Shown here: positions 12,237-60,376 of the stretch, piece after piece
Numbering within the stretch: the stretch's first letter is position 1
How the letters are laid out: every line of letters starts with the position of its first letter
Assembly: GCF_019931275.1 (NCBI RefSeq)
Contig: NZ_JAIOTY010000002.1
Coordinates: forward strand, 496,001-560,000
Length of the DNA: 64,000 nt
From: Nitratidesulfovibrio sp. SRB-5
GTDB taxonomy: Bacteria; Desulfobacterota; Desulfovibrionia; Desulfovibrionales; Desulfovibrionaceae
Direction: 5' to 3'
Translations under genes and position numbers: made by a program
Notes under the pieces: model-generated
The model's input: only the letters and a program-made list of their open reading frames with translations
The model's database searches: none
Told to the model about the DNA's origin: nothing

Positions 12237-12389
12237 TTTTGCCCGCTGGCGTCGTCAAACTTCGCCTGCCATGTCGGTCGAATACGATAAGAGTATGCGG
12301 TGCGGTCGCCATCCGTAAGGCTCGCAAGCTCGCCTAACGGCTGCCGCACTCCCTCATGGCAGGCTAGTTTTCCTCGCCAGCGAACAAAA
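12237..12389 (+). repeat. Structured CGGTC/CTCCCT element, copy A (3' of malic enzyme gene)
   Basis: Nested helices: outer arms 12237-12251 and 12375-12389 pair except for a CC/AA internal mismatch; the inner stem 12264-12273 with 12355-12364 is a perfect 10 bp. The core starts TCGGTC, then an ATAC/GTAT hairpin, and ends ACTCCCTC. This copy has an extra internal hairpin (GTGCGG...CCGCAC) holding a 28-bp palindrome-like word at 12313-12340 that recurs inverted at 18358-18385. It begins 20 bases after the upstream stop codon. Confidence 0.75.
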
Positions 12390-12578
12390 ATCCTGGTTTG
12401 CATGCGCCCGGTAACGCCAAGCGTGCTTGGGAGCGGGCATCGCATGCCTCTCCGGCCAAGACATGCTGTGTTGGGCACCGGTGGCCTTTTGCCGCCGGTG
12501 CCGTTGCGTGGAAGCCCCCGGTGTTTTAATTTTCAAGAATTGCCATGTCGCCGGAGAGGCGCGTGATGGAGGTGTGAC

Positions 12579-14147
12579 GTGGACATTCGCTTTCAGGTGG
12601 GCGGTCCTGCCCAGTGGCGTGCGGATGCGGTGATCGTGTTCCTGTTCGAGGGCGAGCCCCTTGCGGACGCGGCGCCGGAACTGCTGGAGGCTGCGCCGTG
12701 GCTGGGCATTGCCCCGGCGGTGCGCGATTTTCGGGGCAGGAAGGACGAGGTTGCCGTGTTCCACGGGCACCCGGACCTGGCCGTGCCGCGCGTGATCGCG
12801 GCGGGCCTTGGCAAGCGCGAGGCGTTCGCGGCCACGGCCCCTGCCGGGCTGCGCGCGGCGGCGGGCGCTGCGCTGCGCCGCTGCCGCGAACTGAAGATAG
12901 AGACGGTGGCTGTGGATGCCGTGGCCCTGGCGCGCGTGGTGGAGACAGGCGGCGATGCCCCTGCCGGAACCCCGTCCTGGTCCCCGGCGGAAGAGGCCGT
13001 GTGCGGCGCGCTGCTGGGCCTGTACCGCTACGACCGGTTCAAGACCAACGGCAACGGCAACGGCAACGGGGAGAATGGCGGAGAAGACGCCCGCTTCGAG
13101 CCGCGCTGGCTGGGCCTGCTGTGCGCCGAAGTCTCGGTGCCGGACGACCTGCACGCCGCCGCCCGCCGGGGCGAGGCCGCAGCCGCCGGGGTGGCCCTGG
13201 CGCGCGACCTGGTCAACGGCCCGCCCAACTTCGTCACTCCCGGCCACCTGGCCGAGCAGGCCGTGGCCATCGCGAGGAAGTACGGCATGCAGGCCCGCTC
13301 GCTGGGCCGCGCCGAACTGGTGGAGATGGGCATGGGAGCCTTTGCCTCGGTGTTTCGCGGCGCCGAGGAAGAGCCCCGGCTGGTGGTCATCGAGCATGCC
13401 CCCAAGGGGACGGAAGACCAGAAGCCGCTGGTGTTCGTGGGCAAGGGCATCACCTTCGACACGGGCGGCATCAGCCTGAAGCCCCCCGCCAAGATGCACG
13501 AGATGAAGGGCGACATGGCGGGCGCGGCGGCCGTGCTGGGCCTGTTCGAGGCGCTGGGCCGCTCCGACGTGCCCCGCCGGGCGGTGGGCATCATGCCCTG
13601 CACCGAGAACATGCCCGACGGCAGGGCCACCCGCCCCGGCGACATCGTGACCACCCTGTCCGGCAAGACGGTGGAGGTCATCAACACCGATGCCGAAGGG
13701 CGGCTGGTGCTGTGCGACGCCCTGACCTGGGCCCAGCGCGAATACGCCCCCGAAGTGGTGGTGGACCTGGCCACCCTGACCGGGGCCTGCGTGGTGGCGC
13801 TGGGCACGGATGTGGCGGCGGTGTTCGCCAACGATGACGCGCTGTCGGGCCGCATCCGCGCCGTGGGCGACGTGGTGGGCGACCGCTTCTGGCCCCTGCC
13901 GCTGTGGGACATGTACTTCGAGAACCTGAAAAGCGACGTGGCCGACATCGCCAACGTGGGCCCGCGCGAGGGCGGGGCGGTCAACGCGGCGCTGTTCCTG
14001 AAGCAGTTCGTGGACAAGGGCGTGCGCTGGGCGCACCTGGACATTGCCGGGCCTGCCTACACCGCCAAGAAGACGTCCACCTGCCCCGGCGGCGGCACCG
14101 GCTTTGCGGTGCGCACGCTGCTGGAACTGGTGCGCGGCGGCGTGTAG
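12579..14147 (+). CDS. pepA: Leucyl aminopeptidase (M17 family cytosol aminopeptidase)
   Basis: Encodes 522 residues from GTG 12579, with GGAGGT six bases upstream. M17 enzymes are hexameric two-metal exopeptidases that release N-terminal Leu and other residues in the cytoplasm. The C-terminal catalytic domain has the family signatures: VGKGITFDTGGISLKP (metal-binding Lys near 289 and Asp), MKGDMAGAAAVLG, and the signature NTDAEGRLVLCDAL (near 369) with metal-binding Asp and Glu. An Asn-Gly hexamer repeat (AACGGC x4, about 13048-13071) lies in the linker between the variable N-terminal and catalytic domains. No partner gene is adjacent. Confidence 0.95.
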   Translation: MDIRFQVGGPAQWRADAVIVFLFEGEPLADAAPELLEAAPWLGIAPAVRDFRGRKDEVAVFHGHPDLAVPRVIAAGLGKREAFAATAPAGLRAAAGAALRRCRELKIETVAVDAVALARVVETGGDAPAGTPSWSPAEEAVCGALLGLYRYDRFKTNGNGNGNGENGGEDARFEPRWLGLLCAEVSVPDDLHAAARRGEAAAAGVALARDLVNGPPNFVTPGHLAEQAVAIARKYGMQARSLGRAELVEMGMGAFASVFRGAEEEPRLVVIEHAPKGTEDQKPLVFVGKGITFDTGGISLKPPAKMHEMKGDMAGAAAVLGLFEALGRSDVPRRAVGIMPCTENMPDGRATRPGDIVTTLSGKTVEVINTDAEGRLVLCDALTWAQREYAPEVVVDLATLTGACVVALGTDVAAVFANDDALSGRIRAVGDVVGDRFWPLPLWDMYFENLKSDVADIANVGPREGGAVNAALFLKQFVDKGVRWAHLDIAGPAYTAKKTSTCPGGGTGFAVRTLLELVRGGV

Positions 14148-14175
14148 CGCCCGACATCGAATCCGGAAACGGTCA

Positions 14176-14207
14176 GCGGGCCGCGAGGGGAAACCTTCGC
14201 GGCCCGC
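14176..14207 (+). terminator. Terminator-like hairpin after pepA
   Basis: GC-rich stem (GCGGGCCGCGA with TTCGCGGCCCGC, one bulge) 28 bases after the pepA stop, between convergent pepA and the diguanylate cyclase gene. It lacks a clear T-run. Confidence 0.5.
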
Positions 14208-14269
14208 ATGCGTTGCGACGGGGCAGGGGGCGTGCCCGGCGGGTGCCGGGGAAATATCCCGGAAGCGTC

Positions 14270-15415
14270 CTAGGCTTCCTCTTCGTCCAGCATCAGCCCT
14301 TCGGGCAGGAAAATGTCGGGCACTTCCCCGGCGAACACCCGGTTGCGGCCCTGTTCCTTGGCCAGATACAGTTTCTGGTCGGCCTTGCGGATGTGGTAGT
14401 CGATGTCGCCTTCCGGGCCGCAGGTGTGCACCCCGAAGGACAGGGTAACGCTGACGGGGATGCCGTGGTACGAGTATTCCATGGCTTCCACCAGACTGCG
14501 CAGCTTTTCGGCCAGCCGGGCGGCCCCGGCCTCGTCGGTTTCCGGCAGCAGCAGCAGGAACTCTTCGCCGCCCCAGCGGCAGATGGTGTCCTGGTGGCGC
14601 AGGTTGTCGTGCAGCAGCCCGGCCACCGATTGCAGCACCAGGTCGCCGCACTGGTGGCCGTAACAGTCGTTCACCGACTTGAAGTGGTCGATGTCGCAGA
14701 TGGCGATGGACAGCGGCCTGCCGGTGCGGCGGGCGCGCACCTGCTCGTATTCCAGCCGTTCGCACAGGGCGCGCCGGTTGGCGAGGCCTGTCAGTTCGTC
14801 GGTGCGGGCGCTTTCGGCCAGTTGCTGGGTAAGCAGGATGAGCAGGCGCTGGGTATGGCGGCGGGTGTATTCCGCAAGCCCCGCGAAGATGCCGCAGCAC
14901 AGCAGGGCCACCATGTAACGGATGCGGAAGGCCTGCGAATAGTCGGCGTACAGGAAGGGATCGCCGGGCAGGAACAGGATGGCGCCCACCCCCAGCAGCA
15001 GGGCGCCCATCAGCAGGATGCCGATGGACAGGCCGAAGGTCAGCATGACCACGGGCGGAAAGATGAACAGCCACACAAAGCCGCTGCCCTCCACCCCGCC
15101 GTGGGACACCATGTACAGCGACAGGGTGAACAGCGCCAGCACCAGCGTGGTGCTGGGCAGCACGTGGCGACCGGTGCGCCCCACCCAGAACAGTCCGAAC
15201 AGGGCAAGCGCCAGCATTGCCAGCAGGAACAGCGCAAGGGTGCCCTGATCCTGCATGAAATCCAGCAGCGCCATTACGCCGGAGAACAACGCGGTGACGC
15301 CATAGAACAGGTTCGCCACCCCGGTGACGCGCGCGGTCTCCGGGTCGGCGTCGTCCTGCAGGCCATTGGCCAGCAGGGCGTTCATGCAGCGGTGCAGCCT
15401 GTTCTTGTCGAACAC
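14270..15415 (-). CDS. Membrane diguanylate cyclase (GGDEF)
   Basis: Encodes 381 residues if started at GTG 15415, chosen because GAGAGG lies five bases upstream; an ATG 30 bases further in is the alternative. Residues about 35-200 contain six or so hydrophobic segments (a 6-TM sensor without a recognised ligand motif). The GGDEF domain (about 215-375) has an active GGEEF signature and a canonical RxxD inhibitory site (RHQD) five residues before it. It should therefore make c-di-GMP from two GTP at the membrane and be product-inhibited. It is convergent with pepA and is not in an operon. Confidence 0.9.
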   Translation of the reverse strand: MFDKNRLHRCMNALLANGLQDDADPETARVTGVANLFYGVTALFSGVMALLDFMQDQGTLALFLLAMLALALFGLFWVGRTGRHVLPSTTLVLALFTLSLYMVSHGGVEGSGFVWLFIFPPVVMLTFGLSIGILLMGALLLGVGAILFLPGDPFLYADYSQAFRIRYMVALLCCGIFAGLAEYTRRHTQRLLILLTQQLAESARTDELTGLANRRALCERLEYEQVRARRTGRPLSIAICDIDHFKSVNDCYGHQCGDLVLQSVAGLLHDNLRHQDTICRWGGEEFLLLLPETDEAGAARLAEKLRSLVEAMEYSYHGIPVSVTLSFGVHTCGPEGDIDYHIRKADQKLYLAKEQGRNRVFAGEVPDIFLPEGLMLDEEEA

Positions 15416-16357
15416 TGATGCCTCTCGTGCCACAATGGGGGCGGACAAAGCCGCGCATGCCCGCAACGCGCCACGGCATCCGGTGCCGGGACGATGGTCG
15501 GGCTGGCGTGTCCATGCGTGAGGGGAAACGCAAGGGGCGGTGCCGGGCGGGGCGACAGTGGCGTTCTCCCCGCACGTTTCCCCAAACGTGCCGCACGCGC
15601 GCCTGCCGGATGGAACCTGGATACAGCGAAACCGTGAAGCCGTGCCGCATGGCGTTGCCGGGTGTTGCGGACTGCCCCCTGCGGCTGGACGGAAAACTGT
15701 CGGTAGCCGACTGGTAACTGGCCGGACTGGCGGCTGCCGACCTGATGGCCGATCGGGTGGTCGATCCAGTGCCCGGTCCGTCGATGTTGCTGGCGAAGTT
15801 GCCGGGCGAAGTCGCCGGGCGAAATTACGGGGCTAAGGTACTGGTCGAGGTTCCCGATCGGAGTTGCCAGCCTGAATGCCGGGCGGGTTCGTCAAGCGGA
15901 GCACCCGCCGGGTTGACCAGGCAACTGGCCGGGAAGGCCGTGACCTATCATGCGGCAGGCGGGCCGGGTGTCGGCCTGTCCGTCCCTTTGCGGCGGATTC
16001 GGCCTGCTCTTTAGTCTTTGTCGGATATTGCCTGCACGATGATGCTGCCTCGGCATACCACAGCGTTGCCCGCCCTGTCAGCGACAACTCTTCTCTCGCG
16101 TCATGCCCTACCTCAAAATGGGTGGAATGCCCACCGGGCGCGTATCCCCTGTCATGCGCGGTCAATGATTGCAGGGCCCTGTGGCGTTCGTGCGAAATGA
16201 AGGAAAATACCGTTGACAAGGCCCCCCGCTGTCAATAGAAGGTGCCACTCTTCCCACGCATGTGCGCCCCTGCCCTGCACCCGCGCATGGGGGAAGAGAG
16301 AGGCTCTGGTCGGCCCGCCGCAAAGGCGGCGCCGTGGCATGCACCTGTAAACGGGGT
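15416..16357. other. Long intergenic spacer
   Basis: About 940 bases with no supported gene or RNA. A GC-rich segment at 15700-15850 has loosely repeated GCCGGGCGAA / CTGGCCGG words. The only functional signal I see is a promoter-like pair near 16213-16241 ahead of speA. Confidence 0.45.
16213..16241 (+). promoter_or_regulatory. Candidate sigma-70 promoter for speA
   Basis: TTGACA at 16213-16218 and TAGAAG at 16236-16241 with a 17-base spacer, about 117 bases before the likely speA start. The -35 is perfect and the -10 matches at four positions. Confidence 0.4.
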
Positions 16358-18295
16358 ATGTATGAGGTTCGGGAATTGGCAAGAAACCGTACGCTGCAAC
16401 AGTGGAGTGTCGAAGACTCCGCTGAGCTCTATGGCATCCGCAATTGGGGTGCCGGGTACTTCGATGTCGCCGCCAGCGGCGATGTCGTGGTCTATCCCTT
16501 CGGAGACAACCGCGGTCCTGCCGTAAGCATTCCGGAAATCATCCGGGGCATGCGGGAGCGCGGCTATGACATGCCGGTGCTCCTGCGCATCGAGAACATT
16601 CTCGATTCCCAGATCACCAGTCTTCACCAATCCTTCCGCAAGGCCATCGGGTCGCTCGGCTACAAGGGCGAATACCGGGGCATCTTTCCCATCAAGGTCA
16701 ATCAGCAGCAGCAGGTGGTCGAAAAGATCGCCCAGTTCGGCTCGCGCTACCACCACGGGCTGGAGGTAGGCAGCAAGGCCGAGCTCATCGCCGCCGTCTC
16801 GCAACTGCGCGACCACGAGGCCTGCCTTGTCTGCAACGGCTACAAGGACGAGGAATTCATCGACCTTGGCCTGCACGCCGTGCGCATGGGCTACAAGTGC
16901 TTCTTCGTGCTGGAAATGGCCAGCGAGCTGCCGCTCATTCTGGAACGCTCCAGGTGCCTTGGCGTGCGTCCGCTCATCGGCGTGCGCGCCAAGCTGTCCG
17001 TGAAGGCAGGCGGCCACTGGACCGATTCCGGCGGCGAGCGTTCCACCTTCGGCCTGACCACGGCGCAGATCGTCGACGTGGTGGACCAGCTGAAGGAGCA
17101 CGACATGCTCGACTGCTTCCAGCTGCTGCACTACCACCTGGGGTCGCAGGTGCCGAACATCCGCGACATCCGCGCCGCGGTCATGGAAGCCTGCCGCATC
17201 TACGGCGGCCTGGTGGCCGAAGGCGCGGCCATGGGCTTTCTGGACCTTGGCGGCGGCCTTGCCGTGGACTACGACGGCTCGCACACCAACTACGTGAGCA
17301 GCCGCAACTACAGCCTTGACGAATACTGCGCGGACATCATCGAGGCGGTGATGAACATCCTCGACGAGGAAGGCATCGCCCATCCGCACATCGTCACCGA
17401 ATCGGGCCGCGCCACCGTGGCCTACTACTCCATGCTGCTGTTCAACATCCTGGATGTGAGCCGCGTGGAGATCGGCAACCTGCCCGACATCCTGCCCGAC
17501 GACTGCCCCGAGCCCGTGCGCAACATGCGCGAGGCGCTGGCCGGTCTTACCCTGCGCAACCTGCAGGAATGCTACAACGACGCCGTGTACTACCGCGACG
17601 AAGTGCGCCAGCAGTTCCTGACCGGGCGCATCACCCTGCGCGAACGCACCCTTGGCGAACGCTACTTCTGGGCCATCATGAAGCGCATCGCCCAGGAAAA
17701 GCAGAAGCTGAAGCACGTGCCCAAGGATCTTGCCGAGATAGATGTGGCCCTGGCCGACATCTACTACGGCAACTTCAGCGTGTTCCAGTCGCTGCCCGAT
17801 TCGTGGGCCATCGACCAGCTGTTCCCGGTGGTGCCCCTGCACCGCCTGAACGAGCTGCCCTCTCGCCAGGGCATCCTGTCCGACATCACCTGCGACAGCG
17901 ACGGGCGCATCGACCACTTCATCGACCCGCAAGGCGTGAAGGGCACCCTGGACCTGCACCCCCTGAAGGACGGCGAGGAATACTACCTCGGCGTGTTCCT
18001 GGTGGGGGCCTATCAGGAAACCCTGGGCGACCTGCACAACCTGCTGGGCGACACCAACGTGGTTTCGGTGCGCGTGCACGAGGACGGCAGCTACGAATTC
18101 GTGCGCGAACTGCGCGGCGATTCGGTGGCCGACATCCTTTCGTACGTGGAATACGACCCCCGGCGCATCATCGACGACATCCGCGAGGCCGCGGAACAGG
18201 CCGTGCGCGAGGGGCGCATCACCCCCTCTGACCGGTACCGGGTGATGCAGGCGTATGAGGATGGGTTGCGGGGTTATACCTACTTCGAACGCTAG
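16358..18295 (+). CDS. speA: Biosynthetic arginine decarboxylase
   Basis: Encodes 645 residues from ATG 16358; a TTG at 16376 with GAGG upstream is an equally plausible start. SpeA is a PLP fold-III enzyme that turns arginine into agmatine, the first step to putrescine. Visible marks: EYRGIFPIKVNQQQQVVE with PLP-lysine K113, the HYHLGSQ and LDLGGGLAVDYDGS phosphate-binding segments, and the C-terminal AYQETLGDLHNLLGDTN with the second-subunit active-site region. Length is normal for the family. The carboxynorspermidine genes downstream suggest that putrescine made from agmatine is extended to spermidine; no agmatinase is in the window. Confidence 0.95.
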   Translation: MYEVRELARNRTLQQWSVEDSAELYGIRNWGAGYFDVAASGDVVVYPFGDNRGPAVSIPEIIRGMRERGYDMPVLLRIENILDSQITSLHQSFRKAIGSLGYKGEYRGIFPIKVNQQQQVVEKIAQFGSRYHHGLEVGSKAELIAAVSQLRDHEACLVCNGYKDEEFIDLGLHAVRMGYKCFFVLEMASELPLILERSRCLGVRPLIGVRAKLSVKAGGHWTDSGGERSTFGLTTAQIVDVVDQLKEHDMLDCFQLLHYHLGSQVPNIRDIRAAVMEACRIYGGLVAEGAAMGFLDLGGGLAVDYDGSHTNYVSSRNYSLDEYCADIIEAVMNILDEEGIAHPHIVTESGRATVAYYSMLLFNILDVSRVEIGNLPDILPDDCPEPVRNMREALAGLTLRNLQECYNDAVYYRDEVRQQFLTGRITLRERTLGERYFWAIMKRIAQEKQKLKHVPKDLAEIDVALADIYYGNFSVFQSLPDSWAIDQLFPVVPLHRLNELPSRQGILSDITCDSDGRIDHFIDPQGVKGTLDLHPLKDGEEYYLGVFLVGAYQETLGDLHNLLGDTNVVSVRVHEDGSYEFVRELRGDSVADILSYVEYDPRRIIDDIREAAEQAVREGRITPSDRYRVMQAYEDGLRGYTYFER

Positions 18296-18311
18296 GCACC
18301 CGCTCCGACAG

Positions 18312-18490
18312 GCGATTTCGCCCGCTGGCGGACCGACCCGAAGGGCGCGCAGCGTGGCCGTTAGGCGAGCTTGCGAGCCTTACGGACATCGAGAGCAACG
18401 CTGTCAGGCGGCGGGCCGCATATCGGTCACGTACCAAAAAGTACGCTCCCTCATGCGGCCCTGGCCTTCCTTGCCAGCGAACGAAATCGC
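18312..18490 (+). repeat. Structured CGGTC/CTCCCT element, copy B (3' of speA)
   Basis: Begins 16 bases after the speA stop. Outer arms 18312-18329 and 18473-18490 pair over 16 of 18 positions, with the same CC/AA mismatch as copy A. The inner stem is 18413-18421 with 18453-18461 (9 bp perfect). The core is CGGTCA, hairpin CGTAC-CAAAAA-GTACG (18430-18445), then CTCCCTC. A roughly 80-base insertion between outer and inner stems contains the 28-bp word (18358-18385) that is inverted in copy A. A 16-bp direct repeat (18488-18503 and 18576-18591) lies just beyond. Confidence 0.75.
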
Positions 18491-18840
18491 ACTGTCGGCG
18501 GGTTGTGCTGAGGCGTGAAGAACGCATGAGCTTTCGGAAGCGGGCGCCGTAGCGCCACGGCGGTACGGTGAAAAACGCACTGTCGGCGGGTGTTGTGGTG
18601 CTGCGAAGAAGACGTTGAGTCATCGCGGCCCATCGTACCCCCATCGAAGCAGGATACCTTTGATGCATGTCATGCCCATGGCATGATATGCTGATGCCGG
18701 TCACCGGCGCATACAGGCAACAAGCGGGGCCGTCCCATGGTGTGGGGCAGGCCGTTCGGGATAACCACAGCAGTGTCGCGCGGTCGCGCGTTTCCGGGCA
18801 TGGGTGTTCGGGGCGGGCGGGGTGCGCAAAGGAGTGCGTC

Positions 18841-20031
18841 ATGGCACGTGTCCTCATCATCGGCGCTGGCGGCGTGGGCGGCGTGGTCGTCCACAAGTGC
18901 GCGCAGGTTCCCTCCGTGTTTTCCGAAATCATGCTGGCAAGCCGCACCAAGTCGAAGTGCGACGCCATTGCCGCAGACGTGAAGGCCCGCACCGGGCGCA
19001 CCATCGAAACGGCCCGGGTGGACGCGGACAACGTGCCCGAGCTGGTGGCGCTGATCCGCGCCTACAAGCCGGACATGGTGCTGAACATCGCCCTGCCGTA
19101 CCAGGACCTGGCCATCATGGACGCCTGCCTCGAAACCGGCGTGCATTACCTGGATACCGCCAACTACGAGCCGCTGGACGAAGCCAAGTTCGAGTACAAG
19201 TGGCAGTGGGCCTATCAGGAGCGCTTCGAGAAGGCCGGGCTGATGGCCCTTCTGGGCAGCGGCTTCGACCCCGGCGTGACCAACGTGTTCTGCGCCTACG
19301 TCATGAAGCACCTGCTGGACGAAGTGCACGTGCTCGACATCATCGACTGCAACGCGGGCGACCACGGCCACCCCTTCGCCACCAACTTCAACCCGGAAAT
19401 CAACATCCGCGAAGTGACCGCGCGTGGCCGCTACTGGGAACGGGGCGAGTGGGTGGAAACCGATCCCCTGTCGTGGTCCATGAACTACGACTTTCCCGAC
19501 GGCATCGGCCCCAAGAAGTGCTTCCTCATGTACCACGAGGAGCTGGAGTCGCTGGTGCTGAACCTGAAGGGGCTGAAGCGCGCCCGGTTCTGGATGACCT
19601 TCTCGGACAATTATCTGAACCACCTGAAGGTGCTGGAAAACGTGGGCATGACCCGCATCGACGAAGTGGAGCACGACGGCAAGAAGATCGTGCCCATCCA
19701 GTTCCTGCGCGCGCTGCTGCCCGACCCGGCGTCCCTCGGCCCGCGCACCAAAGGCAAGACCTGCATCGGCTGCCTGATGCAGGGGGTGAAGGACGGCAAG
19801 CCCAAGACCGTCTACATCTACAATGTGTGCGACCATCAGGAATGCTACCGCGAGGTGGGTTCGCAGGCCATTTCGTACACCACCGGCGTGCCCGCCATGA
19901 TCGGCGCCATGATGATGGTGACCGGCAAGTGGTCCGGCAAGGGCGTGTACAACATGGAACAGCTGGACCCCGACCCGTTCATGGACGCCCTGAACAAGCA
20001 CGGGCTGCCGTGGGTGGTGGTGGAGAAGTAG
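18841..20031 (+). CDS. Carboxynorspermidine dehydrogenase (saccharopine dehydrogenase family)
   Basis: Encodes 396 residues from ATG 18841 with AAAGGAG upstream. The N-terminal Rossmann fold (VLIIGAGGVGGVVVHKCA) binds NAD(P)H; the rest matches the saccharopine-dehydrogenase-like family (GSGFDPGVTNVFCAYV). In bacteria that lack S-adenosylmethionine-based spermidine synthase, this enzyme condenses aspartate semialdehyde with putrescine or diaminopropane to carboxyspermidine or carboxynorspermidine, which NspC decarboxylates. The presence of nspC 1.6 kb downstream supports this over lysine metabolism. The two genes are separated here by a structured repeat and a nucleotidyltransferase gene pair. 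Confidence 0.9.
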   Translation: MARVLIIGAGGVGGVVVHKCAQVPSVFSEIMLASRTKSKCDAIAADVKARTGRTIETARVDADNVPELVALIRAYKPDMVLNIALPYQDLAIMDACLETGVHYLDTANYEPLDEAKFEYKWQWAYQERFEKAGLMALLGSGFDPGVTNVFCAYVMKHLLDEVHVLDIIDCNAGDHGHPFATNFNPEINIREVTARGRYWERGEWVETDPLSWSMNYDFPDGIGPKKCFLMYHEELESLVLNLKGLKRARFWMTFSDNYLNHLKVLENVGMTRIDEVEHDGKKIVPIQFLRALLPDPASLGPRTKGKTCIGCLMQGVKDGKPKTVYIYNVCDHQECYREVGSQAISYTTGVPAMIGAMMMVTGKWSGKGVYNMEQLDPDPFMDALNKHGLPWVVVEK

Positions 20032-20159
20032 GCATTCAGACGCTTTTGCCTTCCGACTGCGTCAGAAAGGTCTTCCGCTTCGGTCACGTACCAAATCCGT
20101 ACGCTCCCTCAGCGGAAGACCTTTCTTCCTTGCCGGTGAACAAAATCCCTCTGAATGCC
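20031..20159 (+). repeat. Structured CGGTC/CTCCCT element, copy C
   Basis: Starts at the last base of the upstream stop codon. The outermost arms 20031-20040 and 20150-20159 are perfect (10 bp). The inner stem 20065-20079 with 20111-20125 is a perfect 15 bp (GAAAGGTCTTCCGCT). The core is TCGGTCA, hairpin CGTAC/GTACG (20087-20103), then CTCCCTC, with the trailer CTTCCTTGCCGGTGAACAAA. A TTTTGCC / GAACAAAA pairing between outer and inner stems repeats the CC/AA mismatch seen in copies A and B. Confidence 0.8.
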
Positions 20160-20273
20160 GATCGCCTGGTGCGACGGGTAGAGCGAATTCCGGGGGATCG
20201 CGTCAGCGGTTCCCCGATTCTCGTCTTTAAGCATGTTGATGACAGGGCAATTTTCAGAAGAGGCTTGCGGCAT

Positions 20274-20287
20274 TCTAGAATCTAGAA
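20274..20287 (+). promoter_or_regulatory. Tandem TCTAGAA operator-like site
   Basis: TTCTAGAATCTAGAA (starting at 20274) lies 6 bases before the start codon of the HTH gene, in a locally AT-rich stretch. It contains overlapping palindromes and would suit autoregulation by the HTH protein. This is inferred from position and symmetry only. Confidence 0.35.
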
Positions 20288-20293
20288 TATGGA

Positions 20294-30092: not shown

Positions 30093-30105
30093 TAGGCCCA
30101 TCTTT

Positions 30106-52114: not shown

Positions 52115-52283
52115 TCGGCATCGGTGGTTCGGCATTGCTTGGCGCGTCACGCGCGGGGCATCGGACGGACACGGCGCTGCGCCCTTGTGGTGCGGCGTGG
52201 CGTGTCCGTTGGCATTTTCCGGGCGGTATTTTCCGGCGCATTTTCCGGCAGGCAGTTCCTGCCGGATGCAACGAGGTGAAGCC

Positions 52284-53087
52284 ATGGCCAGACAGCCCGT
52301 TTTCTACATTCCGCACGGCGGCGGTCCCTGCTTCTTCATGGACTGGACCCCGCCCGACACCTGGAACCCGCTGGCCGAATGGCTGCGCGCGCTGCCAGAA
52401 TCGCTGCCGGAGCCGCCCGCCGCCCTGCTGGTCATCTCGGCCCATTGGGAAGAGCGCGACTTCACCCTGGCCACCACGCCCGATCCGGGGCTGCTGTTCG
52501 ACTATTACGGCTTTCCGCCGCACACCTACGAATTGCAATGGCCCGCGCCGCCCGCGCCGCATCTGTTCCCGCGCGTGCGTGAACTGCTGGCCGGGGCGGG
52601 CATTCCCCTGGGCGAAGATCCGGAACGCGACTTCGACCACGGGGTGTTCGTGCCGTTGCTGCTGCCGTGGCCGCGGGCCGCCATTCCCACGTTGCAGATA
52701 TCCATGCGCCACGACCTGGACCCGGCGGCGCACATTGCGCTGGGCCGCGCCCTGGCCCCCCTGCGCGACCAGGGCGTGCTGCTGGTTGGCAGCGGCATGA
52801 GCTATCACAACATGCGGGCCTTCCGCCGGGCCGACAACCAGCCCCTGCCGGATTCCGACGTGTTCGACGCCTGGCTCACGGCCACGATCACGGATGCGGA
52901 CCCGAGGCGGCGCGACCATGCCCTGGTCCGCTGGCAGGACGCACCGGCCGCGCGCGATGCGCATCCCCGCGAGGACCATCTGCTGCCGCTGATGGTGGTT
53001 GCCGGGGCCGCCGGTGCGGACGCGGGGGAACGGGTATTCGCCTGTAGGGCCATGGGCGCCACCATCGCCGCGCACCGTTTCGGCTGA
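52284..53087 (+). CDS. Class III extradiol dioxygenase family protein (LigB/DODA-like)
   Basis: Encodes 267 residues from ATG 52284 (GAGGTGAAG upstream). The family (4,5-DOPA dioxygenase / LigB subunit B) uses a non-haem metal held by His residues seen here in VFYIPHGGGPCFFMD, LLVISAHWEERDF and RDFDHGVFVPLLLP, with the later helix VGSGMSYHNMR. Such enzymes open catechol-type rings, but in anaerobes the physiological role is unclear. The gene sits between two OB-like genes on the same strand. Confidence 0.88.
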   Translation: MARQPVFYIPHGGGPCFFMDWTPPDTWNPLAEWLRALPESLPEPPAALLVISAHWEERDFTLATTPDPGLLFDYYGFPPHTYELQWPAPPAPHLFPRVRELLAGAGIPLGEDPERDFDHGVFVPLLLPWPRAAIPTLQISMRHDLDPAAHIALGRALAPLRDQGVLLVGSGMSYHNMRAFRRADNQPLPDSDVFDAWLTATITDADPRRRDHALVRWQDAPAARDAHPREDHLLPLMVVAGAAGADAGERVFACRAMGATIAAHRFG

Positions 53088-53306
53088 TGCCGGGGGCATG
53101 TCGCTAGGGCCGGGGCGGGTTGCGCCAGCCGTGGCGCGTGCAAAATCGCGCTTGCAATAGCTTGAAATGAATTGTGTTTTTTCGGGCAGGAAATTTTTTG
53201 CACATCCGCCCCGCCAAACACTTGCGTTTTTGGGAAAGGGGTAATATTCCGCAGTGTTGTGTGGGTCCGAAAGGCGGGCCCTTACCCGTTCGCGCGAGAG
53301 TTATCT

Positions 53307-53588
53307 GTGAATACTATGGAAGGCATCAGGACTGTTCAGGGGTACATCGTGCCGCTCACCCTGAAAGGGCACGACGACATGGCCGCCAAGGTGGCCGTGT
53401 CCGCCGGGGATACCGAATTCCACATCGTCCCGCGCGGTGCCGGGGCCGACCTTGCGGCGCACATCAATGCCCACGTGGAAGTGGTGGGCATGGTGCGCGA
53501 AAAGGACGGCGAGCTGCTGTTGCAGGTGCGCAGCTACAAGCTCACCGACGGCTACGAGCACGAATGGTACGACGACGACGTGGAATAG
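53307..53588 (+). CDS. Hypothetical OB-like protein
   Basis: Encodes 93 residues from GTG 53307, chosen for GAGAG six bases upstream; ATG 53316 is the alternative. The whole protein is one beta-rich domain (RTVQGYIVPLTLKGHDDMAA, then VSAGDTEFHIV, HINAHVEVVGMVREKDGELL, LQVRSYKLTDGY) with an acidic tail (EHEWYDDDVE). The layout matches the domains at 51098 and 51683. The upstream region is AT-rich and probably holds its own promoter. Confidence 0.65.
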   Translation: MNTMEGIRTVQGYIVPLTLKGHDDMAAKVAVSAGDTEFHIVPRGAGADLAAHINAHVEVVGMVREKDGELLLQVRSYKLTDGYEHEWYDDDVE

Positions 53589-54015
53589 CCGCCGCAGGGT
53601 AGCCACCGGCAAGGCACCTTCGGGTTGCCGCCGCCCGGCTCCGGCTGTCCGGTTCCGGTTGTCCGGGGCTGCTGTCCGGTTGTAGCCACCCGGGTTTCAA
53701 CGTCGGGCAGTACATGTCGCGCGCGGGCTTTGGCCGCGCGGCTCTCCGCGCTGGTCGCGCGTTCCGGGTGTTTCCCGCCGCCGCATATTCTTCCGTTCCG
53801 TCCGTTCACTCCCTCCCGCCTGCCTCGCGCGCCGCGTTCACGCCCCCGGCCACGTTCCTGTTGCCGCGCCCGCACGCATGTGGCGCGTGGCCCCGGCCAG
53901 TACCGACACCTTCCGCACCTTTCGACACCTTCCGGCCTCTTCCCGCCCGTTTCCTTTCGGACTGGCTGCGTCAGGCACCCTTGGCGCGGTCCATGGGGCA
54001 TGGTAGATTGCCCGC
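53589..54015. other. Spacer without a gene
   Basis: GC-rich, with short CCGGTTCCGG / CGGTTGTCCGG repeats near 53640-53690. No gene, RNA or strong promoter is seen before the lipid-transport operon. Confidence 0.4.
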
Positions 54016-55308
54016 ATGCGTGAAACCGTTCCCCCGTTCCGAGAACCCACCCTCAAGGGCGACTACCGGCGTCCCGACCCGGACGCCCACGCCGGGCAGC
54101 ACGAGCCGGGACTGGTCTGCACGCCTGCCGCGTCGTGCGTGGAGCCCGGCCCCATCGACGGGATGGACGACGGGATGGGCGGGGGCGCGCGCGAACTGGT
54201 GCTCACCTTTTCCGGCGTGTGGGACGTGGCCTCCATCGGCCGCATGACCGCCCGGCTGCTGCGCCGCTGCGCCGAGGTGGGCAACGCCTGTTCGGCGCAG
54301 GGCGATGCCCCGGTGGTGCATCTGGACCTGGCCGAAGTGACCCGCCTGGATACCGCCGGTGCGCAACTGCTGTGCCGGGCCGCCGCCGGCATGGCGACGG
54401 CTGGGGCGCGCGTGGTGTGGCACGTGACCGACCATGGCCAGTCCATGCTGCTGGACCGGGTGCGGGCCATCGACATTTCCGCGGTGCCGCGCGCACGCCG
54501 CATATCTCCCGTGGTGGGCGCGCTGAACGCCATCGGCGGCTCCATCGTGGAGGAACTGGAACAGGCCCGCGCCATCATCGGCTTCCTGGGCATGTTCCTG
54601 GTTTCGCTGGCGGCGGCGGTGGCCCGGCCGTGGCGGCTGCGCTGGGTGTCCATCGTGCACCACATGGAACAGACCGGCATTCAGGCCGTGCCCATCGTGG
54701 CCCTGCTGACCTTCCTCATCGGGCTGGTCACCGCGTACATGGGGTCGGAGCAGTTCACCCGCTTCGGGGCGCAGGTGTTCGTGGTGAACCTGATAGAGGT
54801 TTCCACCCTGCGCGAACTGGGCGTGCTGCTGACGGCGCTCATCGTGGCGGGGCGCTCCGGCTCGTCGTTCACCGCCCAGATAGGGGCCATGGTGGCCAAC
54901 GAAGAGGTGGACGCCATGCGCTCCATGGGGCTGGACCCCATGGAGGTGCTGGTGATTCCCCGCGTGGTGGCCCTGGTGCTGATGCTGCCGGTGCTCACCT
55001 TCATCGCCGACTTCATGGGCGTGCTGGGCGGGGGCATTGCCTCGTGGCTGTCGCTGGGCATATCGCCCGGCGCGTTCGCCGTGCGCTTCCAGGAGATCAC
55101 CCGGCTGGCCAACTTCGTCACCGGGCTGGTCAAGGCGCCGTTCTTCGCGCTGATCATCGGCATCGTGGGGTGCTTCCAGGGCTTTCGGGTTACCGGCAGC
55201 GCGGAGTCGGTGGGGCGGCTGACCACCCAGGCGGTGGTGGAGTCGATCTTCCTGGTCATCGTGGCCAACGCGGGCTTCGCCATCCTGTTCATGTCGCTGG
55301 GGGTGTAG
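54016..55308 (+). CDS. mlaE: STAS-MlaE fusion: lipid ABC transporter permease
   Basis: Encodes 430 residues from ATG 54016. Residues about 55-165 form a STAS domain (VVHLDLAEVTRLDTAGAQLL), the role played by separate MlaB in enterobacteria; residues 180-430 are the MlaE permease with five or so helices (MGSEQFTRFGAQVFVVNLIE, REAGVLLTALIVAGRSGS-type loop seen as RELGVLLTALIVAGRSGSSF, and EEVDAMRSMGLDP). With MlaF and MlaD it moves phospholipids between inner and outer membrane. First gene of a four-gene operon with tight spacing. Confidence 0.92.
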   Translation: MRETVPPFREPTLKGDYRRPDPDAHAGQHEPGLVCTPAASCVEPGPIDGMDDGMGGGARELVLTFSGVWDVASIGRMTARLLRRCAEVGNACSAQGDAPVVHLDLAEVTRLDTAGAQLLCRAAAGMATAGARVVWHVTDHGQSMLLDRVRAIDISAVPRARRISPVVGALNAIGGSIVEELEQARAIIGFLGMFLVSLAAAVARPWRLRWVSIVHHMEQTGIQAVPIVALLTFLIGLVTAYMGSEQFTRFGAQVFVVNLIEVSTLRELGVLLTALIVAGRSGSSFTAQIGAMVANEEVDAMRSMGLDPMEVLVIPRVVALVLMLPVLTFIADFMGVLGGGIASWLSLGISPGAFAVRFQEITRLANFVTGLVKAPFFALIIGIVGCFQGFRVTGSAESVGRLTTQAVVESIFLVIVANAGFAILFMSLGV

Positions 55309-55309
55309 G

Positions 55310-56161
55310 GTGACGGACGCGCCCATCATCTCGCTGCGTGGCATCACCAACCGCTTCGGCACGGTGACGGTGCACGAGAACCTGGACCTGGACGTGTGGC
55401 CCGGCGAGGTGCTGGGGCTCATCGGGGGTTCCGGTTCCGGCAAGTCGGTGCTGCTGCGCACCATCCTTGGGCTGCGCCGCCCCCAGGCGGGCGACGTGCG
55501 CGTGCTGGGGGTGGACATCACCCATTCCGACGAGGCCGCGCGCCGCGCGGTGCGCCGCCAGTGGGGGGTGCTGTTCCAGGACGGGGCGCTGTTCTCGTCG
55601 CTGCCGGTCATCGAGAACATCAAGGTGCCCCTGCGCGAGTTCACCAACCTGCCGCCCGAAACCATGGATGACGTGGCCGCCCTGAAGCTGCGCATGGTGG
55701 GCCTGGCGCCGGAGGCGGCGCTGAAATACCCGTCCGAACTTTCCGGCGGCATGCGCAAGCGCGCGGGGCTTGCCCGCGCCCTGGTCATGGACCCGGCGGT
55801 GGTCTTTCTGGACGAACCCACGGCGGGGCTGGACCCCATCGGCGCGGCGGCCTTCGACGCGCTGATCGCCGACCTGCGCGACGCGCTTGGGCTGACCGTG
55901 GTCATGATTACCCACGATCTCGATTCACTGTACGCGGTATGCGACCGGGTGGCCGTGCTGGCGGAAAAACGCATCTACGCGGTGGGGACCATTCAGGAAC
56001 TGCTGCGGGTGGACCACCCGTGGCTGCGCGAATATTTCACGGGGCCGCGCGGACGCGTGGCCGCCGGGGTGTCCGGAGCCACGGATCGGGACGCGCCTGG
56101 TGTGCCCGGGGACGCGGACCGGGGCGCACATGCCGGGCAGACCCCGGCCCAAGGGAGATGA
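55310..56161 (+). CDS. mlaF: MlaF-like ABC transporter ATPase
   Basis: Encodes 283 residues from GTG 55310, one base after mlaE. Walker A is GGSGSGKS, the signature is LSGGMRKR and Walker B is VVFLDEPTAGLDPIG, all intact. It powers the MlaE permease. The last 40 residues are a Gly/Pro/Asp-rich tail beyond the usual end, encoded by GC-rich repeat-like DNA. Confidence 0.94.
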   Translation: MTDAPIISLRGITNRFGTVTVHENLDLDVWPGEVLGLIGGSGSGKSVLLRTILGLRRPQAGDVRVLGVDITHSDEAARRAVRRQWGVLFQDGALFSSLPVIENIKVPLREFTNLPPETMDDVAALKLRMVGLAPEAALKYPSELSGGMRKRAGLARALVMDPAVVFLDEPTAGLDPIGAAAFDALIADLRDALGLTVVMITHDLDSLYAVCDRVAVLAEKRIYAVGTIQELLRVDHPWLREYFTGPRGRVAAGVSGATDRDAPGVPGDADRGAHAGQTPAQGR

Positions 56162-56162
56162 C

Positions 56163-57086
56163 ATGGAGATCAGGGCAAGCTACGTGCTGGTCGGGGTGTT
56201 CACGCTCATGGCCGTGGTGGGGGCGCTGGCCTTCATCCTGTGGACGGCGGGGCGCGGCAGCGGCGTGGACCTCGTGCAGTACGACATCAATTTCACGGGG
56301 CACGTTTCCGGCCTCAGCGTGGCCAACGACGTGCTGTTCAACGGGGTGAAGGTGGGGTCGGTGAAGGCCATCACCATCAGCCCCACCGACCCTGGCCGGG
56401 TCAAGGTGCGCGTCGAGATGGCGGCCAACACCCCCGTGCGCGAAGATTCCATGGCCTCGCTGGAGGCGCGCGGCATCACCGGCGTGACCGTGGTGCAGAT
56501 TTCCGGCGGCACGGCCACCAGCCCGCTGCTCAAGCCGCACTCCGGTGAAGAGGTGGCGGTGATTCCCGCCCAGCTTTCGCGGCTGGAGGCCCTGTTTGCC
56601 GGGTTGCCCGCCGTGGTTTCCGACAGCCGCGACCTCATCCAGCGCATCGCGGGCATGGCCGACGACGAGAACCGCCGGGCGCTGGCGCAGACCCTGCAAT
56701 CGCTGGACGTGCTTACCGCGCGGCTGGCCGCCCGGGCAGACGCCATGGACCGCATCATCGGGAACCTGGACGTGACCACCCGGCGCCTGGCCAACGCATC
56801 CGCCGGGCTGGAAGGCGCCACCGGCGACATGCGCGACTACCTGCGCACCGACCTGCGCGAATCCACCCGCGCCGTGGGCGACATGGCCCGGCGCATGGAC
56901 GGCATGGTGGCCCGCGCCGAGCCGGGCGTGGCCAAGTTTTCGGGCGAGGGGCTGGAAGACATGCGCCGCCTGCTGGCCGAGGCGCGCCAGTTGGTGGGCA
57001 CGCTGGACCGGCTGGCCCACAAGGTGGAAAGCGACCCCCGCCGTTTCCTGTTCGGCAACCCCGTACCGGAGTATGATGCCCGATGA
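56163..57086 (+). CDS. mlaD: MlaD-like MCE domain protein
   Basis: Encodes 307 residues from ATG 56163 with AAGGGAG upstream, one base after mlaF. One N-terminal membrane helix (YVLVGVFTLMAVVGALAFIL) is followed by a single MCE domain (about 38-120, INFTGHVSGLSVANDVLFNG and the ARGITGVTVVQISGG core) and a long helical tail. MCE proteins form hexameric rings that carry lipid across the periplasm. Confidence 0.92.
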   Translation: MEIRASYVLVGVFTLMAVVGALAFILWTAGRGSGVDLVQYDINFTGHVSGLSVANDVLFNGVKVGSVKAITISPTDPGRVKVRVEMAANTPVREDSMASLEARGITGVTVVQISGGTATSPLLKPHSGEEVAVIPAQLSRLEALFAGLPAVVSDSRDLIQRIAGMADDENRRALAQTLQSLDVLTARLAARADAMDRIIGNLDVTTRRLANASAGLEGATGDMRDYLRTDLRESTRAVGDMARRMDGMVARAEPGVAKFSGEGLEDMRRLLAEARQLVGTLDRLAHKVESDPRRFLFGNPVPEYDAR

Positions 57087-57790
57087 TGTCCGTTTCCACT
57101 CCGTGCCCGTCCGCTTCCCCTTTGTGTGCGTTGGCCGCGGGCGCCCTCCGTGCCGTCCGCCGGAAGCACCGGCCCTGGATATTGCTGCTCGCCCTGCTGC
57201 TGGCCGTACTGCCCGGCTGTGCCCGCGTACTGGACCCAGGCCCCGCACCCACCCACCTGTTGCTGGCCCCGGCCATGCCCGGCCCCGACGCGGGCGGCGC
57301 GGTGCATCTGCAACTGGCCATCTCCCTGCCGGAAACCAGCCGCATGCTGGATACCGACCGCATCGTGCTGGTGCTGGGGGGAGAGAACGGGCGCGAGGTG
57401 CGTTACTATGCCGGGGCCAAGTGGACCAGCCCGGCTCCGCGCCTGGTGCAGCGGCTGCTGGTGGAAGCCTTCGAGCGGGCCGGGCGGCTGGACGGCGCGG
57501 CGGAGGAATCGGCGGGCATCTACCCCGACTACCGGCTGATGACCGACCTGCGCCGCTTCAATACCCGCATGGCTGAAGGTGCCGCGCCCCTGGTCGAGGT
57601 GGAGCTGGCCCTGCGCCTGGTGGACCTGAAGACCGGGCGCATCGTGGCCTTTACCTCCATCGGGCGCGATTGCCCCGCCGCCGGGTCCGCCCTGCCGCAA
57701 GTGGCCGAGGCCTTCGAGACGGCCATGGGTGACGTGCTGGCTCGGGCCACTTCGTGGAGCCTGGAGGCCATGGCCACCCCCCGTTCCTGA
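57083..57790 (+). CDS. ABC-type transport auxiliary lipoprotein (PqiC/LetAB-associated type)
   Basis: Encodes 235 residues from ATG 57083, overlapping mlaD by four bases. A lipobox, LAVLPGC, ends the signal peptide near residue 46. The mature part has the ABC-auxiliary layout (HLLLAPAMPG, TDRIVLVLGGENGREVRYYAGAKW is split over about 95-120, APRLVQRLLVEAFERAG, VEVELALRLVD). This outer-membrane-facing lipoprotein replaces the MlaC shuttle found in enterobacterial operons, hinting at a direct-bridge type of transporter. Confidence 0.85.
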   Translation: MMSVSTPCPSASPLCALAAGALRAVRRKHRPWILLLALLLAVLPGCARVLDPGPAPTHLLLAPAMPGPDAGGAVHLQLAISLPETSRMLDTDRIVLVLGGENGREVRYYAGAKWTSPAPRLVQRLLVEAFERAGRLDGAAEESAGIYPDYRLMTDLRRFNTRMAEGAAPLVEVELALRLVDLKTGRIVAFTSIGRDCPAAGSALPQVAEAFETAMGDVLARATSWSLEAMATPRS

Positions 57791-57881
57791 CGCGGCGTGC
57801 GGTCGGGGCGTTGTCGGCAGCGGACTTGAACCTGCCGATGCCACGGGGGTGCCCCGTCTGTTCTTTCCCTTGCCATGTTTC

Positions 57882-57905
57882 CGGGGCCGGAAGTGTCCGG
57901 CCCCG
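57882..57905 (+). terminator. Terminator after the lipid transport operon
   Basis: Stem CGGGGCCGG / CCGGCCCCG with loop AAGTGT, followed by TTCCTTTTTC. A classic intrinsic terminator 92 bases after the operon. Confidence 0.85.
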
Positions 57906-58031
57906 TTCCTTTTTCTTTGTGATATTTTTTGCGGCGTGGACCTATCGCCAATATGGACAGTGTGCTACGCTGGCGCCATCAGGATCTGATGCGTTACTCT
58001 CGGGGGAGGGTTGCAACAGGCGAGGTGCTCC

Positions 58032-60077
<2,046 letters not shown>

Positions 60078-60112
60078 GGCGGGACGCGCCCTCATGTATA
60101 TGGATGCACAGG

Positions 60113-60143
60113 GACGGGCCGTCCGGCGATGCCGGGCGGCCCG
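60113..60143 (+). terminator. Terminator-like hairpin after the chemoreceptor gene
   Basis: 14-bp stem (60113-60126 with 60130-60143, one T/G wobble) around GAT, 35 bases after the stop. No T-run follows. Confidence 0.55.
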
Positions 60144-60260
60144 TTGGTGCTTGTGGTGGAGCGGGGAACGGAAAGGACAGGCGCGGGTGGGGCAAGCCGG
60201 GAAGGCATGGGAAAGGGCAGCGGAGGGCAGGAGAGGGGTGATGGCGATGCATACGGAGCG

Positions 60261-60376
60261 GAAACAGCTTCTGTGGCGCTGGCGGCGTCAGTGGATTGGG
60301 GGGCTCGGTCATGTACGCGAGTACACTCCCTTCGCCCCCCAATCCACTCCTTGCCAGCGCCGCAACATCTTGTTTC
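60261..60376 (+). repeat. Structured CGGTC/CTCCCT element, copy D
   Basis: Outer pairings GAAACA (60261-60266) with TGTTTC (60371-60376) and GGCGCTGGC (60275-60283) with GCCAGCGCC (60353-60361). Inner stem 60290-60304 with 60334-60348, a perfect 15 bp (AGTGGATTGGGGGGC). The core is TCGGTCA, hairpin TGTAC-GCGA-GTACA (60312-60325), then CTCCCTT. The hairpin loop here is a GNRA tetraloop. Same strand as the upstream chemoreceptor gene. Confidence 0.8.

What the first reader, a model, noticed from the sequence alone, without database searches (positions are those of the whole stretch)
12237..60376. Four copies of a structured element with invariant core and covarying stems
At 12237-12389, 18312-18490, 20031-20159 and 60261-60376 the same plan recurs: an outer pairing (three copies use CGCTGGC with GCCAGCG), then a perfect inner stem of 9-15 bp whose sequence differs completely between copies, then the core TCGGTC-hairpin(GTAC/GTAC or ATAC/GTAT)-CTCCCT, then CTTCCTTGCC or a variant. 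Copies A, B and C also keep a tandem CC/AA mismatch beside TTTTG/CAAAA or TTTCG/CGAAA. Stem sequences change while pairing is kept, which is strong evidence that the folded form is selected. All four lie 3' of a gene (malic enzyme, speA, carboxynorspermidine dehydrogenase, chemoreceptor) and point the same way as that gene. I know no named family for it. It could be a 3'-UTR RNA, a processing or termination structure, or a REP-like element mobilised as folded single-stranded DNA.
Basis: seen in the sequence. Interest (0 to 1): 0.88.

Follow-up and report, generated by a model that had tools for sequence, protein, structure and literature searches.

The report
ERIC-like mobile hairpins at stop codons
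The four hairpins are copies of a small mobile DNA element, related to the ERIC repeats of gut bacteria, that sits about ninety times in this genome, often on the stop codons of ordinary genes, and whose fold is kept while its stem letters change.

Summary
In detail: all four copies exist and their pairing is kept by covariation (90 copies, 22 of 23 pairs changed on both sides, 0 of 500 shuffles). A covariance model finds 89 copies in this genome and matches in 87 of 348 class genomes; the core pattern also occurs in other phyla. Near-identical copies in a relative (G262) show the ends: a 145-bp palindrome GGG...CCC flanked by TA on both sides in 28 of 29 copies. One pair of such ends brackets an IS5-family transposase. 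These are MITE-like mobile elements. Their core resembles ERIC/IRU repeats (E 0.001-0.005). Two corrections: the better-folding strand is the reverse complement (74 of 76 own copies; hold-out 34 of 35), and a RAYT is absent from six of eight genus genomes. Counted alike, 43 of 89 own copies start on the upstream gene's stop codon against 2 of 29 in G262; a looser count gives 72 of 89. This suggests selective retention; a lost stop-seeking transposase is not excluded. The own genome holds no PF13340 or PF01609 transposase. Function is untested.

The parts
12216..12411 (+). Copy A, ERIC-like palindromic element. Its 5' end follows the TA (12214-12215) of the malic enzyme stop; a second TA lies at 12412-12413 and is followed by A. 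The better-folding strand is the minus strand.
   Evidence: in the G066 orthologue no model hit, and the stop reads TAA instead of TAG
12274..12279 (+). Copy A core, 5' half TCGGTC
12349..12354 (+). Copy A core, 3' half CTCCCT
12298..12348 (+). Copy A apical insert, an extra hairpin module
   Evidence: sequence; the same module recurs in other copies
12313..12340 (-). 28-base imperfect palindrome inside the apical insert of A
   Evidence: C2:508313-508340
18295..18508 (+). Copy B, element starting on the speA stop codon (TAG 18293-18295); right-hand TA not present, right end approximate
   Evidence: the G066 orthologue holds a different variant at the same site
18331..18401 (+). Copy B 5' module, extra hairpins in the 5' arm (limits approximate)
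   Evidence: sequence; recurs in other copies
18358..18385 (+). 28-base imperfect palindrome in the 5' module of B
   Evidence: C2:514358-514385
18423..18451 (+). Copy B core TCGGTC-hairpin-CTCCCT
20031..20159 (+). Copy C, 129 bp, starting on the third base of the TAG stop (20029-20031) of the carboxynorspermidine synthase gene
   Evidence: no model hit at this site in G066
20080..20109 (+). Copy C core TCGGTC-hairpin-CTCCCT
60254..60384 (+). Copy D, 131 bp, TA at 60252-60253, 176 bases between it and the chemoreceptor stop
   Evidence: G066 holds a different subfamily at the orthologous site
60305..60331 (+). Copy D core TCGGTC-hairpin-CTCCCT
10624..12216 (+). Gene upstream of A, malic enzyme
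   Evidence: below the curated cut-off
16262..18295 (+). Gene upstream of B, arginine decarboxylase SpeA
18667..20031 (+). Gene upstream of C, carboxynorspermidine synthase/dehydrogenase
   Evidence: below the curated cut-off
58011..60077 (+). Gene upstream of D, methyl-accepting chemotaxis receptor
   Evidence: below the curated cut-off

Best explanation
The four copies are members of a large family of MITE-like mobile palindromes, related in fold and core sequence to ERIC/IRU repeats. How it works: (1) A non-autonomous element of about 130-150 bp with inverted ends (GGG...CCC type) inserts at a TA inside YTAR and duplicates the TA. Shown in a relative, inferred for this genome. (2) The enzyme is supplied in trans by a DDE transposase of the IS5 family (IS427-like). 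Inferred from shared ends in one relative only. (3) Because the element begins with G, insertion into the TA of a TAG or TAA stop rebuilds a TAG stop, so the protein is unchanged. This follows from the sequence and fits copy A. (4) In this genus, copies on stop codons in one orientation are kept and others are lost. Inferred from the contrast with the copies in G262. (5) A fold on one strand, the one antisense to the upstream gene, is under selection while the stem letters drift or are swapped, probably because the folded strand is read by a protein during mobilisation or by the RNA machinery.
For: Copy number and spread: 89 hits at E<=1e-3 in the own genome, all eight sampled genus genomes, 54 of 199 family genomes, 87 of 348 class genomes. 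Ends: 28 of 29 G262 copies with TA on both sides, YTA left and TAR right; 8 of these were picked by R1 alone and all 8 have it, the other 21 were picked with a pattern that contains CTA. 97 end matches in G262 against 0 for the reversed pattern. One pair 829 bp apart brackets DUF4096 (79 bits) and DDE_Tnp_1 (52 bits) in two overlapping ORFs, the size and layout given for the IS5/IS427 group (832-865 bp, IR 13-21 bp, DR 2 bp in all but one row shown; PMC3281130 passages). ERIC link: R1's best hit in the E. coli loci is the ERIC core, E 0.0023 and 0.0054; R2, from 24 sequences of records not labelled Desulfovibrio or enterobacteria, gives ERIC 23.8 and 22.5 bits with the next match at 9.3. Stop codon: 43 of 89 copies by called ends, 0 on the 3' side; 72 of 89 by distance to the model start, TAG 55, TAA 11, TGA 6, against G066 genes TAG 258, TGA 162, TAA 80. 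Strand: minimum energy lower on the antisense strand in 74 of 76 own copies (76 of 89 used) and 75 of 77 others, hold-out 34 of 35; A.C exceeds G.T 55 to 23. Turnover: of 18 sites compared with G066, 7 held a model hit and 11 did not; at two the inner stem is replaced while the outer stem is nearly or wholly unchanged.
Against: The own genome has no DUF4096 and no DDE_Tnp_1 gene, and six of seven other genus genomes have no DUF4096. Across 199 genomes DUF4096 does not track the element (my count: 20 of 54 with it, 57 of 145 without). The transposase link rests on one IS in one relative. ERIC's terminal repeats differ from these; the ERIC scores are modest, the comparison was made after I noticed the likeness, and R2's core was fixed by a search pattern taken from these elements, so only its flanks are independent. 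Target duplications in this genome are eroded: TA stands at both called ends in 8 of 89 copies and at neither in 45, partly because end calling was rough. Polarity could reflect a lost stop-seeking transposase instead of selection. Gene calls are by codon usage, not annotation.
Confidence: 0.72

Rival explanations
1. The element is a 3'-UTR RNA module: the sense transcript folds after the stop codon and sets mRNA stability or 3' processing, and mobility is only how it spread.
For: 72 of 89 copies have the upstream same-strand stop codon at the hairpin base, against one opposite-strand stop within 100 bases of the model's 3' end. Strong covariation. Precedent: ERIC at 3' ends in Yersinia changes upstream mRNA stability depending on orientation (PMC2229807 and PMC10969869, passages).
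Against: The sense strand is the weaker folder and its mismatches are A.C rather than G.U, the opposite of what selection on a sense RNA would give. No T-tract. Model hits are lacking at 11 of 18 orthologous places in G066. No expression data.
Confidence: 0.25
2. Polarity comes from insertion, not selection: a transposase of this genus, now lost, placed elements on stop codons in one orientation.
For: Of 11 own sites without a model hit in G066, the five that look plainly empty (own #2, copies A and C, #37, #80) all have the own element on a TAG. No PF13340 or PF01609 transposase is left in the own genome to show current behaviour.
Against: The related G262 copies are not polar: upstream gene same strand 11, opposite 18; stop at 5' end 2, at 3' end 2. 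Both ends carry nearly the same TIR, which gives a transposase little to orient by.
Confidence: 0.2
3. Arms stay complementary because of template-switch (quasipalindrome) repair and gene conversion between copies, not because a fold is selected.
For: Inner stems are replaced on both arms between G000 and G066 inside nearly or wholly unchanged outer stems (sites #11 and #47).
Against: The internal loops recur as mismatches in records of several phyla, which arm repair would erase, and the strand asymmetry of folding exceeds shuffles.
Confidence: 0.12
4. REP/BIME elements moved by a RAYT (TnpA_REP) as folded single-stranded DNA.
For: Folded, intergenic, repeated; the embedded 28-base palindrome looks REP-like. 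PF01797 is somewhat commoner in genomes with the element: 26 of 54 against 48 of 145 (my count).
Against: No PF01797 gene in G066, G038, G085, G112, G124 or G136, which all carry the elements; the own single hit is a remnant. TA on both sides and an IS5-type partner fit a DDE enzyme.
Confidence: 0.03

Closest known systems
ERIC / IRU / RU-1 repeats (Enterobacteriaceae, Vibrionaceae)
   Same: Core (antisense here) GGAGC-TAC-loop-GTA-GTGAC with tandem G.A read from sequence, similar lower-loop letters, one long imperfect hairpin, TA at the ends, intergenic, no transposase shown in a 2007 review.
   Different: Different terminal repeats, stems rewritten between subfamilies, extra modules in some copies, sits on stop codons in this genus, and found outside enterobacteria and vibrios.
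MITEs of the IS5 family, IS427 group
   Same: In G262 similar roughly 16-bp ends bracket an 829-bp two-ORF IS5-type transposase; TA on both sides.
   Different: The interior is not a deleted IS but a conserved hairpin; no such transposase in the window's own genome.
Correia/NEMIS and RUP elements
   Same: About 100-160 bp hairpin MITEs with TA ends (PMC2229807 passages).
   Different: Not compared by sequence here; described for Neisseria and pneumococcus, RUP tied to IS630-Spn1.
REP/BIME with RAYT
   Same: Intergenic, palindromic, many copies.
   Different: REPs are 20-40 bp (start of the PMC3733652 abstract, listing); the Y1 enzyme is absent from six of eight genus genomes.

Membership tests
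ERIC/IRU | Conserved central core sequence | tested here: met
   R1 E 0.0023/0.0054; R2 23.8/22.5 bits against next match 9.3. Modest scores, two distinct E. coli loci, likeness noticed before testing.
ERIC/IRU | About 127 bp folding into one long imperfect stem-loop | tested here: met
   Copy C 129 bp, D 131 bp; G262 145-146 bp. Copies with modules are longer and branched.
ERIC/IRU | TA at the termini, target duplication | tested here: met
   28 of 29 in G262; copies in the own genome are eroded.
ERIC/IRU | Same terminal inverted repeat sequence as enterobacterial ERIC | tested here: not met
   Ends compared by eye: ERIC CATACT/AGTATG against GGG(G)CTGT/ACAGCCCC here.
ERIC/IRU | Occurrence in Enterobacteriaceae and Vibrionaceae (PMC10969869, passages) | tested here: not met
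   Found in the family and class of the window's genome and in records of other phyla.
ERIC/IRU | Orientation-dependent effect on upstream mRNA | not testable with these tools
   Needs RNA work.
MITE of IS5/IS427 | Ends shared with an autonomous IS of the group | tested here: met
   L345 969-1797, one IS, in G262 only.
MITE of IS5/IS427 | Transposase present in the host genome | tested here: not met
   Own genome: 0 PF13340, 0 PF01609.
MITE of IS5/IS427 | Transposase acts on the element | not testable with these tools
   Needs a transposition assay.
REP/RAYT | Y1 transposase in carrying genomes | tested here: not met
   Absent in six of eight genus genomes.
Intrinsic terminator | T-tract after the stem | tested here: not met
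   0 of 89 with TTTT in the next 10 bases, ends as called in that script.
Rfam families | Match at the curated threshold | tested here: not met
   0 in the window; with a permissive scan of 18280-20200 only, M23 at 22 bits (cut-off 41.2) overlaps copy B.

The most novel reading that the evidence does not exclude
ERIC is one branch of a bacteria-wide superfamily of mobile DNA whose inherited unit is a one-strand fold (a ladder of tandem G.A and G.U pairs) rather than a sequence; stems are exchanged as cassettes between copies, and in this genus the element has been taken into use as a stop-codon-bound 3' end module on dozens of genes.
Probability: 0.35. Interest if true: 0.87.

Novelty: new variant of a known kind. 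Interest (0 to 1): 0.72.

Why it matters
A 2007 review (PMC2229807, passages) says that movement of these repeats, ERIC among them, by transposases is hypothesised without experimental support. Relatives with exact ends, near-identical copies and an IS with similar ends make that question testable. The family is also a natural case in which strong covariation comes from mobile DNA and in which the better-folding strand is opposite to the mRNA: a warning for RNA-motif discovery in intergenic DNA. The contrast between random-looking copies in one genus and stop-bound copies in another could measure how selection sorts mobile DNA around genes.

Tried and rejected
RAYT/REP: PF01797 searched in the own genome and 199 family genomes; absent from six of eight genus genomes; rejected, although it is somewhat commoner among genomes with the element (26 of 54 against 48 of 145, my count). 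The own hit (L155) is an IS200-like remnant (my reading) without an R1 match at E<=1 beside it.

Rfam: nothing at gathering level in the window; in 14 other loci no listed match lies on an element; a permissive scan of 18280-20200 gave one weak, below-cut-off overlap on copy B.

IS5-type transposase in the own genome: PF13340 and PF01609 both 0; PF13340 not associated with the element across genomes (my count). In the own genome, ends like AGGGGCTGTTTCCAAATT gave 36 matches; nine stretches around unpaired ones were fetched and searched for partner ends, and ORFs were listed for two of them only; no IS was found there.

G.T against A.C: the first count on isolated mismatches (93 of 126 copies usable; A.C 36, G.T 18 unique contexts) includes the conserved CC/AA loop, so it is partly a motif and not decay. 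The energy comparisons and the pair table carry the strand claim.

Gene orientation in other phyla with crude ORFs is noisy (outside ORFs: 19 same, 13 opposite of 32). Read off that listing by eye: 15 of 60 rows have a same-strand ORF end 41-58 bases before the core, 1 has an opposite-strand ORF end 41-58 bases after it.

End calling is rough (43 of 89 on the stop codon). One search measures from the model start and gives 72 of 89 (61 at 18-36 bases, 11 at 85-106 bases; the second bin is read as copies with the 5' module). The bins were set.

R1 on the 80 listed genome-contig loci: matches at E<=1e-3 in 69 of 80 (my count), not independent because the pattern that fetched them contains the core; four further matches there (L164, L176, L187, L219) lie away from the pattern match. 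The other 39 of the 119 loci were used only as the hold-out (35 places used, 7 dropped for edges or N).

Nitratidesulfovibrio is inferred from L201, L204 and L205, which carry copies that R1 scores highly.

Literature: the listings showed no paper that I recognised as reporting ERIC-like elements outside enterobacteria and vibrios or in Desulfovibrio; subscription papers are mostly not held. Read as passages only: PMC2229807, PMC10969869, PMC3281130, PMC2267715, PMC4596501, PMC4853749. The ERIC primer letters are recalled, not from a call.
Full report
WHAT IS THERE. The four hairpins exist at the stated places. Each is a long imperfect palindrome with outer stem, inner stem and a conserved apical core TCGGTC-hairpin-CTCCCT. 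I built a covariance model R1 from six copies, with the extra modules of A and B left out. It finds 89 matches at E<=1e-3 in the own genome, the best at 1.6e-23; the search scored 150 of 970 first-look candidates, so this is a lower bound. It also finds matches in 54 of 199 family genomes and 87 of 348 class genomes, 18 of 59 genera; matches per genome were capped there. Distribution is patchy. Rfam has no match at its gathering level in the window.

THE FOLD IS SELECTED. On 90 distinct copies, 92.6% of cells pair, 22 of 23 pairs show changes on both sides, 442 cells do, and no shuffle of 500 reaches any of these; sliding the partners drops pairing to 37-45%. The alignment was fitted to the model, which favours it, but the gap is very large.

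WHICH STRAND. In 74 of 76 own-genome copies (76 of 89 used; long inserts and cut ends dropped) and 75 of 77 places in the 80 listed genome-contig loci (some of them Desulfovibrio records) the reverse complement has the lower energy, by about 13 kcal/mol, of which about 4 is explained by composition. The 39 loci not used before gave 34 of 35. With DNA parameters the antisense strand is lower in 73 of 77 own copies. Non-canonical cells on the sense strand are A.C 55 against G.T 23, i.e. G.U on the other strand. On that strand the loops read GGGAG/GACC and GGA/GAC, which can form tandem G.A pairs (read from sequence). Copy D alone of the four shows no difference.

MOBILITY. In G262 there are 97 matches to one terminal sequence at up to 3 mismatches, against 0 for the reversed control. 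In 40 G262 stretches a script found 29 copies with both ends, 145-146 bp long, with TA on both sides in 28, preceded by C or T and followed by G or A. Of these, 8 had been picked by R1 alone (all 8 with TA twice); the other 21 were picked with a pattern that contains CTA, which favours TA. A few fetched copies with other ends were not counted (L329, L367, L371). This gives TA|GGG...CCC|TA. One pair of similar ends lies 829 bp apart and brackets two overlapping ORFs with DUF4096 (79 bits) and DDE_Tnp_1 (52 bits), the layout reported for the IS5/IS427 group (832-865 bp, 2-bp repeats in all but one row shown; PMC3281130 passages). Hence: a MITE-like element, probably moved in trans by such an enzyme. 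In the own genome neither PF13340 nor PF01609 is found, so the copies there have at present no visible partner, and PF13340 does not track the element across genomes (20 of 54 with, 57 of 145 without; my count).

TURNOVER. Own copies were compared with the 800 kb of G066 fetched. Of 18 sites with mapped flanks, 7 hold a model hit in G066 and 11 do not. Of those 11, five look plainly empty (own #2, copies A and C, #37, #80), #94 carries the same composite, missed by the model, #79 another composite, and four I could not judge. At #11 and #47 the outer stem is nearly or wholly unchanged while the inner stem is replaced on both arms; at D a wholly different subfamily sits there. At copy A the G066 stop is TAA, the own stop is TAG followed by the element, and a TAA now stands at the right end: what TA insertion by an element beginning with G predicts.

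POSITION. By called ends, 43 of 89 own copies start on the stop codon of the upstream same-strand gene and 0 end on the stop of an opposite-strand gene; upstream genes are same strand 83, opposite 5, none 1. By distance to the model start, 72 of 89 have the stop at the hairpin base (61 at 18-36 bases, 11 at 85-106; bins set after seeing the data), with TAG 55, TAA 11, TGA 6. Stops of G066 genes are TAG 258, TGA 162, TAA 80. Under random use of intergenic and stop TAs about 4% would be expected (from counts). In the 23 G066 copies the end-based count is 15 against 0. In G262 it is 2 against 2 of 29, and upstream genes are 11 same, 18 opposite; the differences are significant (Fisher p 4e-5 and 1e-9). 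Gene calls are from codon usage, not annotation, and the two genera may have had different enzymes, so selection is the favoured reading but not proven.

RELATION TO ERIC. I noticed that the antisense core resembles the ERIC core and then tested it. E. coli ERIC loci (two distinct loci) give the best R1 hit at the ERIC core (16.6 and 15.3 bits, E 0.0023 and 0.0054). R2, from 24 sequences of records not labelled Desulfovibrio or enterobacteria, finds three window copies at E 8e-9 to 3e-7 (copy A, which has the insert, is not among them) and ERIC at 23.8 and 22.5 bits, with the next match at 9.3 bits. R2's core was fixed by my search pattern, so only its flanks are independent evidence. ERIC shares TA ends, size, hairpin and core (PMC2229807 and PMC2267715, passages) but not the terminal sequence. 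I therefore call these ERIC-like, probably of one superfamily with ERIC, and not ERIC proper. The core pattern occurs in records labelled Clostridia, Lentisphaerae, Porphyromonas, Tannerella, Lysinibacillus, Sporosarcina, Acidobacteria, Verrucomicrobia, Gammaproteobacteria and others; those I saw fold as long hairpins. I estimate (not computed by a tool) that about a dozen matches of that pattern in the whole collection would be chance, so single records may be false. Six viral contigs also carry it.

VERDICT. Real, selected fold; mobile, ERIC-like; new variant of a known kind. What reads the fold, and what it does at the stop codon, is open.

Noticed in passing
window 12313-12340 (-) and 18358-18385 (+); 36 places in the own genome: A 28-base imperfect palindrome CCGTTAGGCGAGCTTGCGAGCCTTACGG (20 forward, 16 reverse at up to 3 mismatches, control 0), itself varying with compensation. 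16 of 36 lie within 150 bases of one of 95 listed elements: 4 inside (opposite orientation), 12 beside (11 same, 1 opposite).
   Followed up: partly
L180 2334-2536, L189 24-223, L241 755-932, L225 5177-5375, L196 777-984: Tandem pairs of elements about 122-135 bases apart; in Lysinibacillus and Sporosarcina beside 5S rRNA and tRNA clusters, in a Coriobacteriales MAG just beside the 16S gene.
   Followed up: no
G000 C1:347445-347765 and C1:1117960-1118524 (L105, L097): Clusters of three elements within the own genome with different stems.
   Followed up: no
G000 C2:682852, C5:26312, C2:1331229: A divergent subfamily with core GCTCACGTAC...GTACGCTCCGC.
   Followed up: no
G000 C1:239748-240005 (L155 1249-1506): Remnant of an IS200-like Y1 transposase with an internal stop; no element found nearby.
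   Followed up: partly
L345 969-1797 (G262 C1:2825668-2826496): IS5-family insertion sequence with ends like those of the G262 elements; candidate autonomous partner.
   Followed up: partly
L156-L161 (viral contigs): Six IMG/VR contigs hold the core pattern and an R1 match (E 3.6e-19 to 4.5e-5); whether these are phage or host flank was not looked at.
   Followed up: no
G066 sites #2, #37, #80: Another repeat, CTCCGGCGGGCAGGGGGC...GCCCCCTGCACCCCC or its complement, occupies the intergenic region where the own genome has an element.
   Followed up: no
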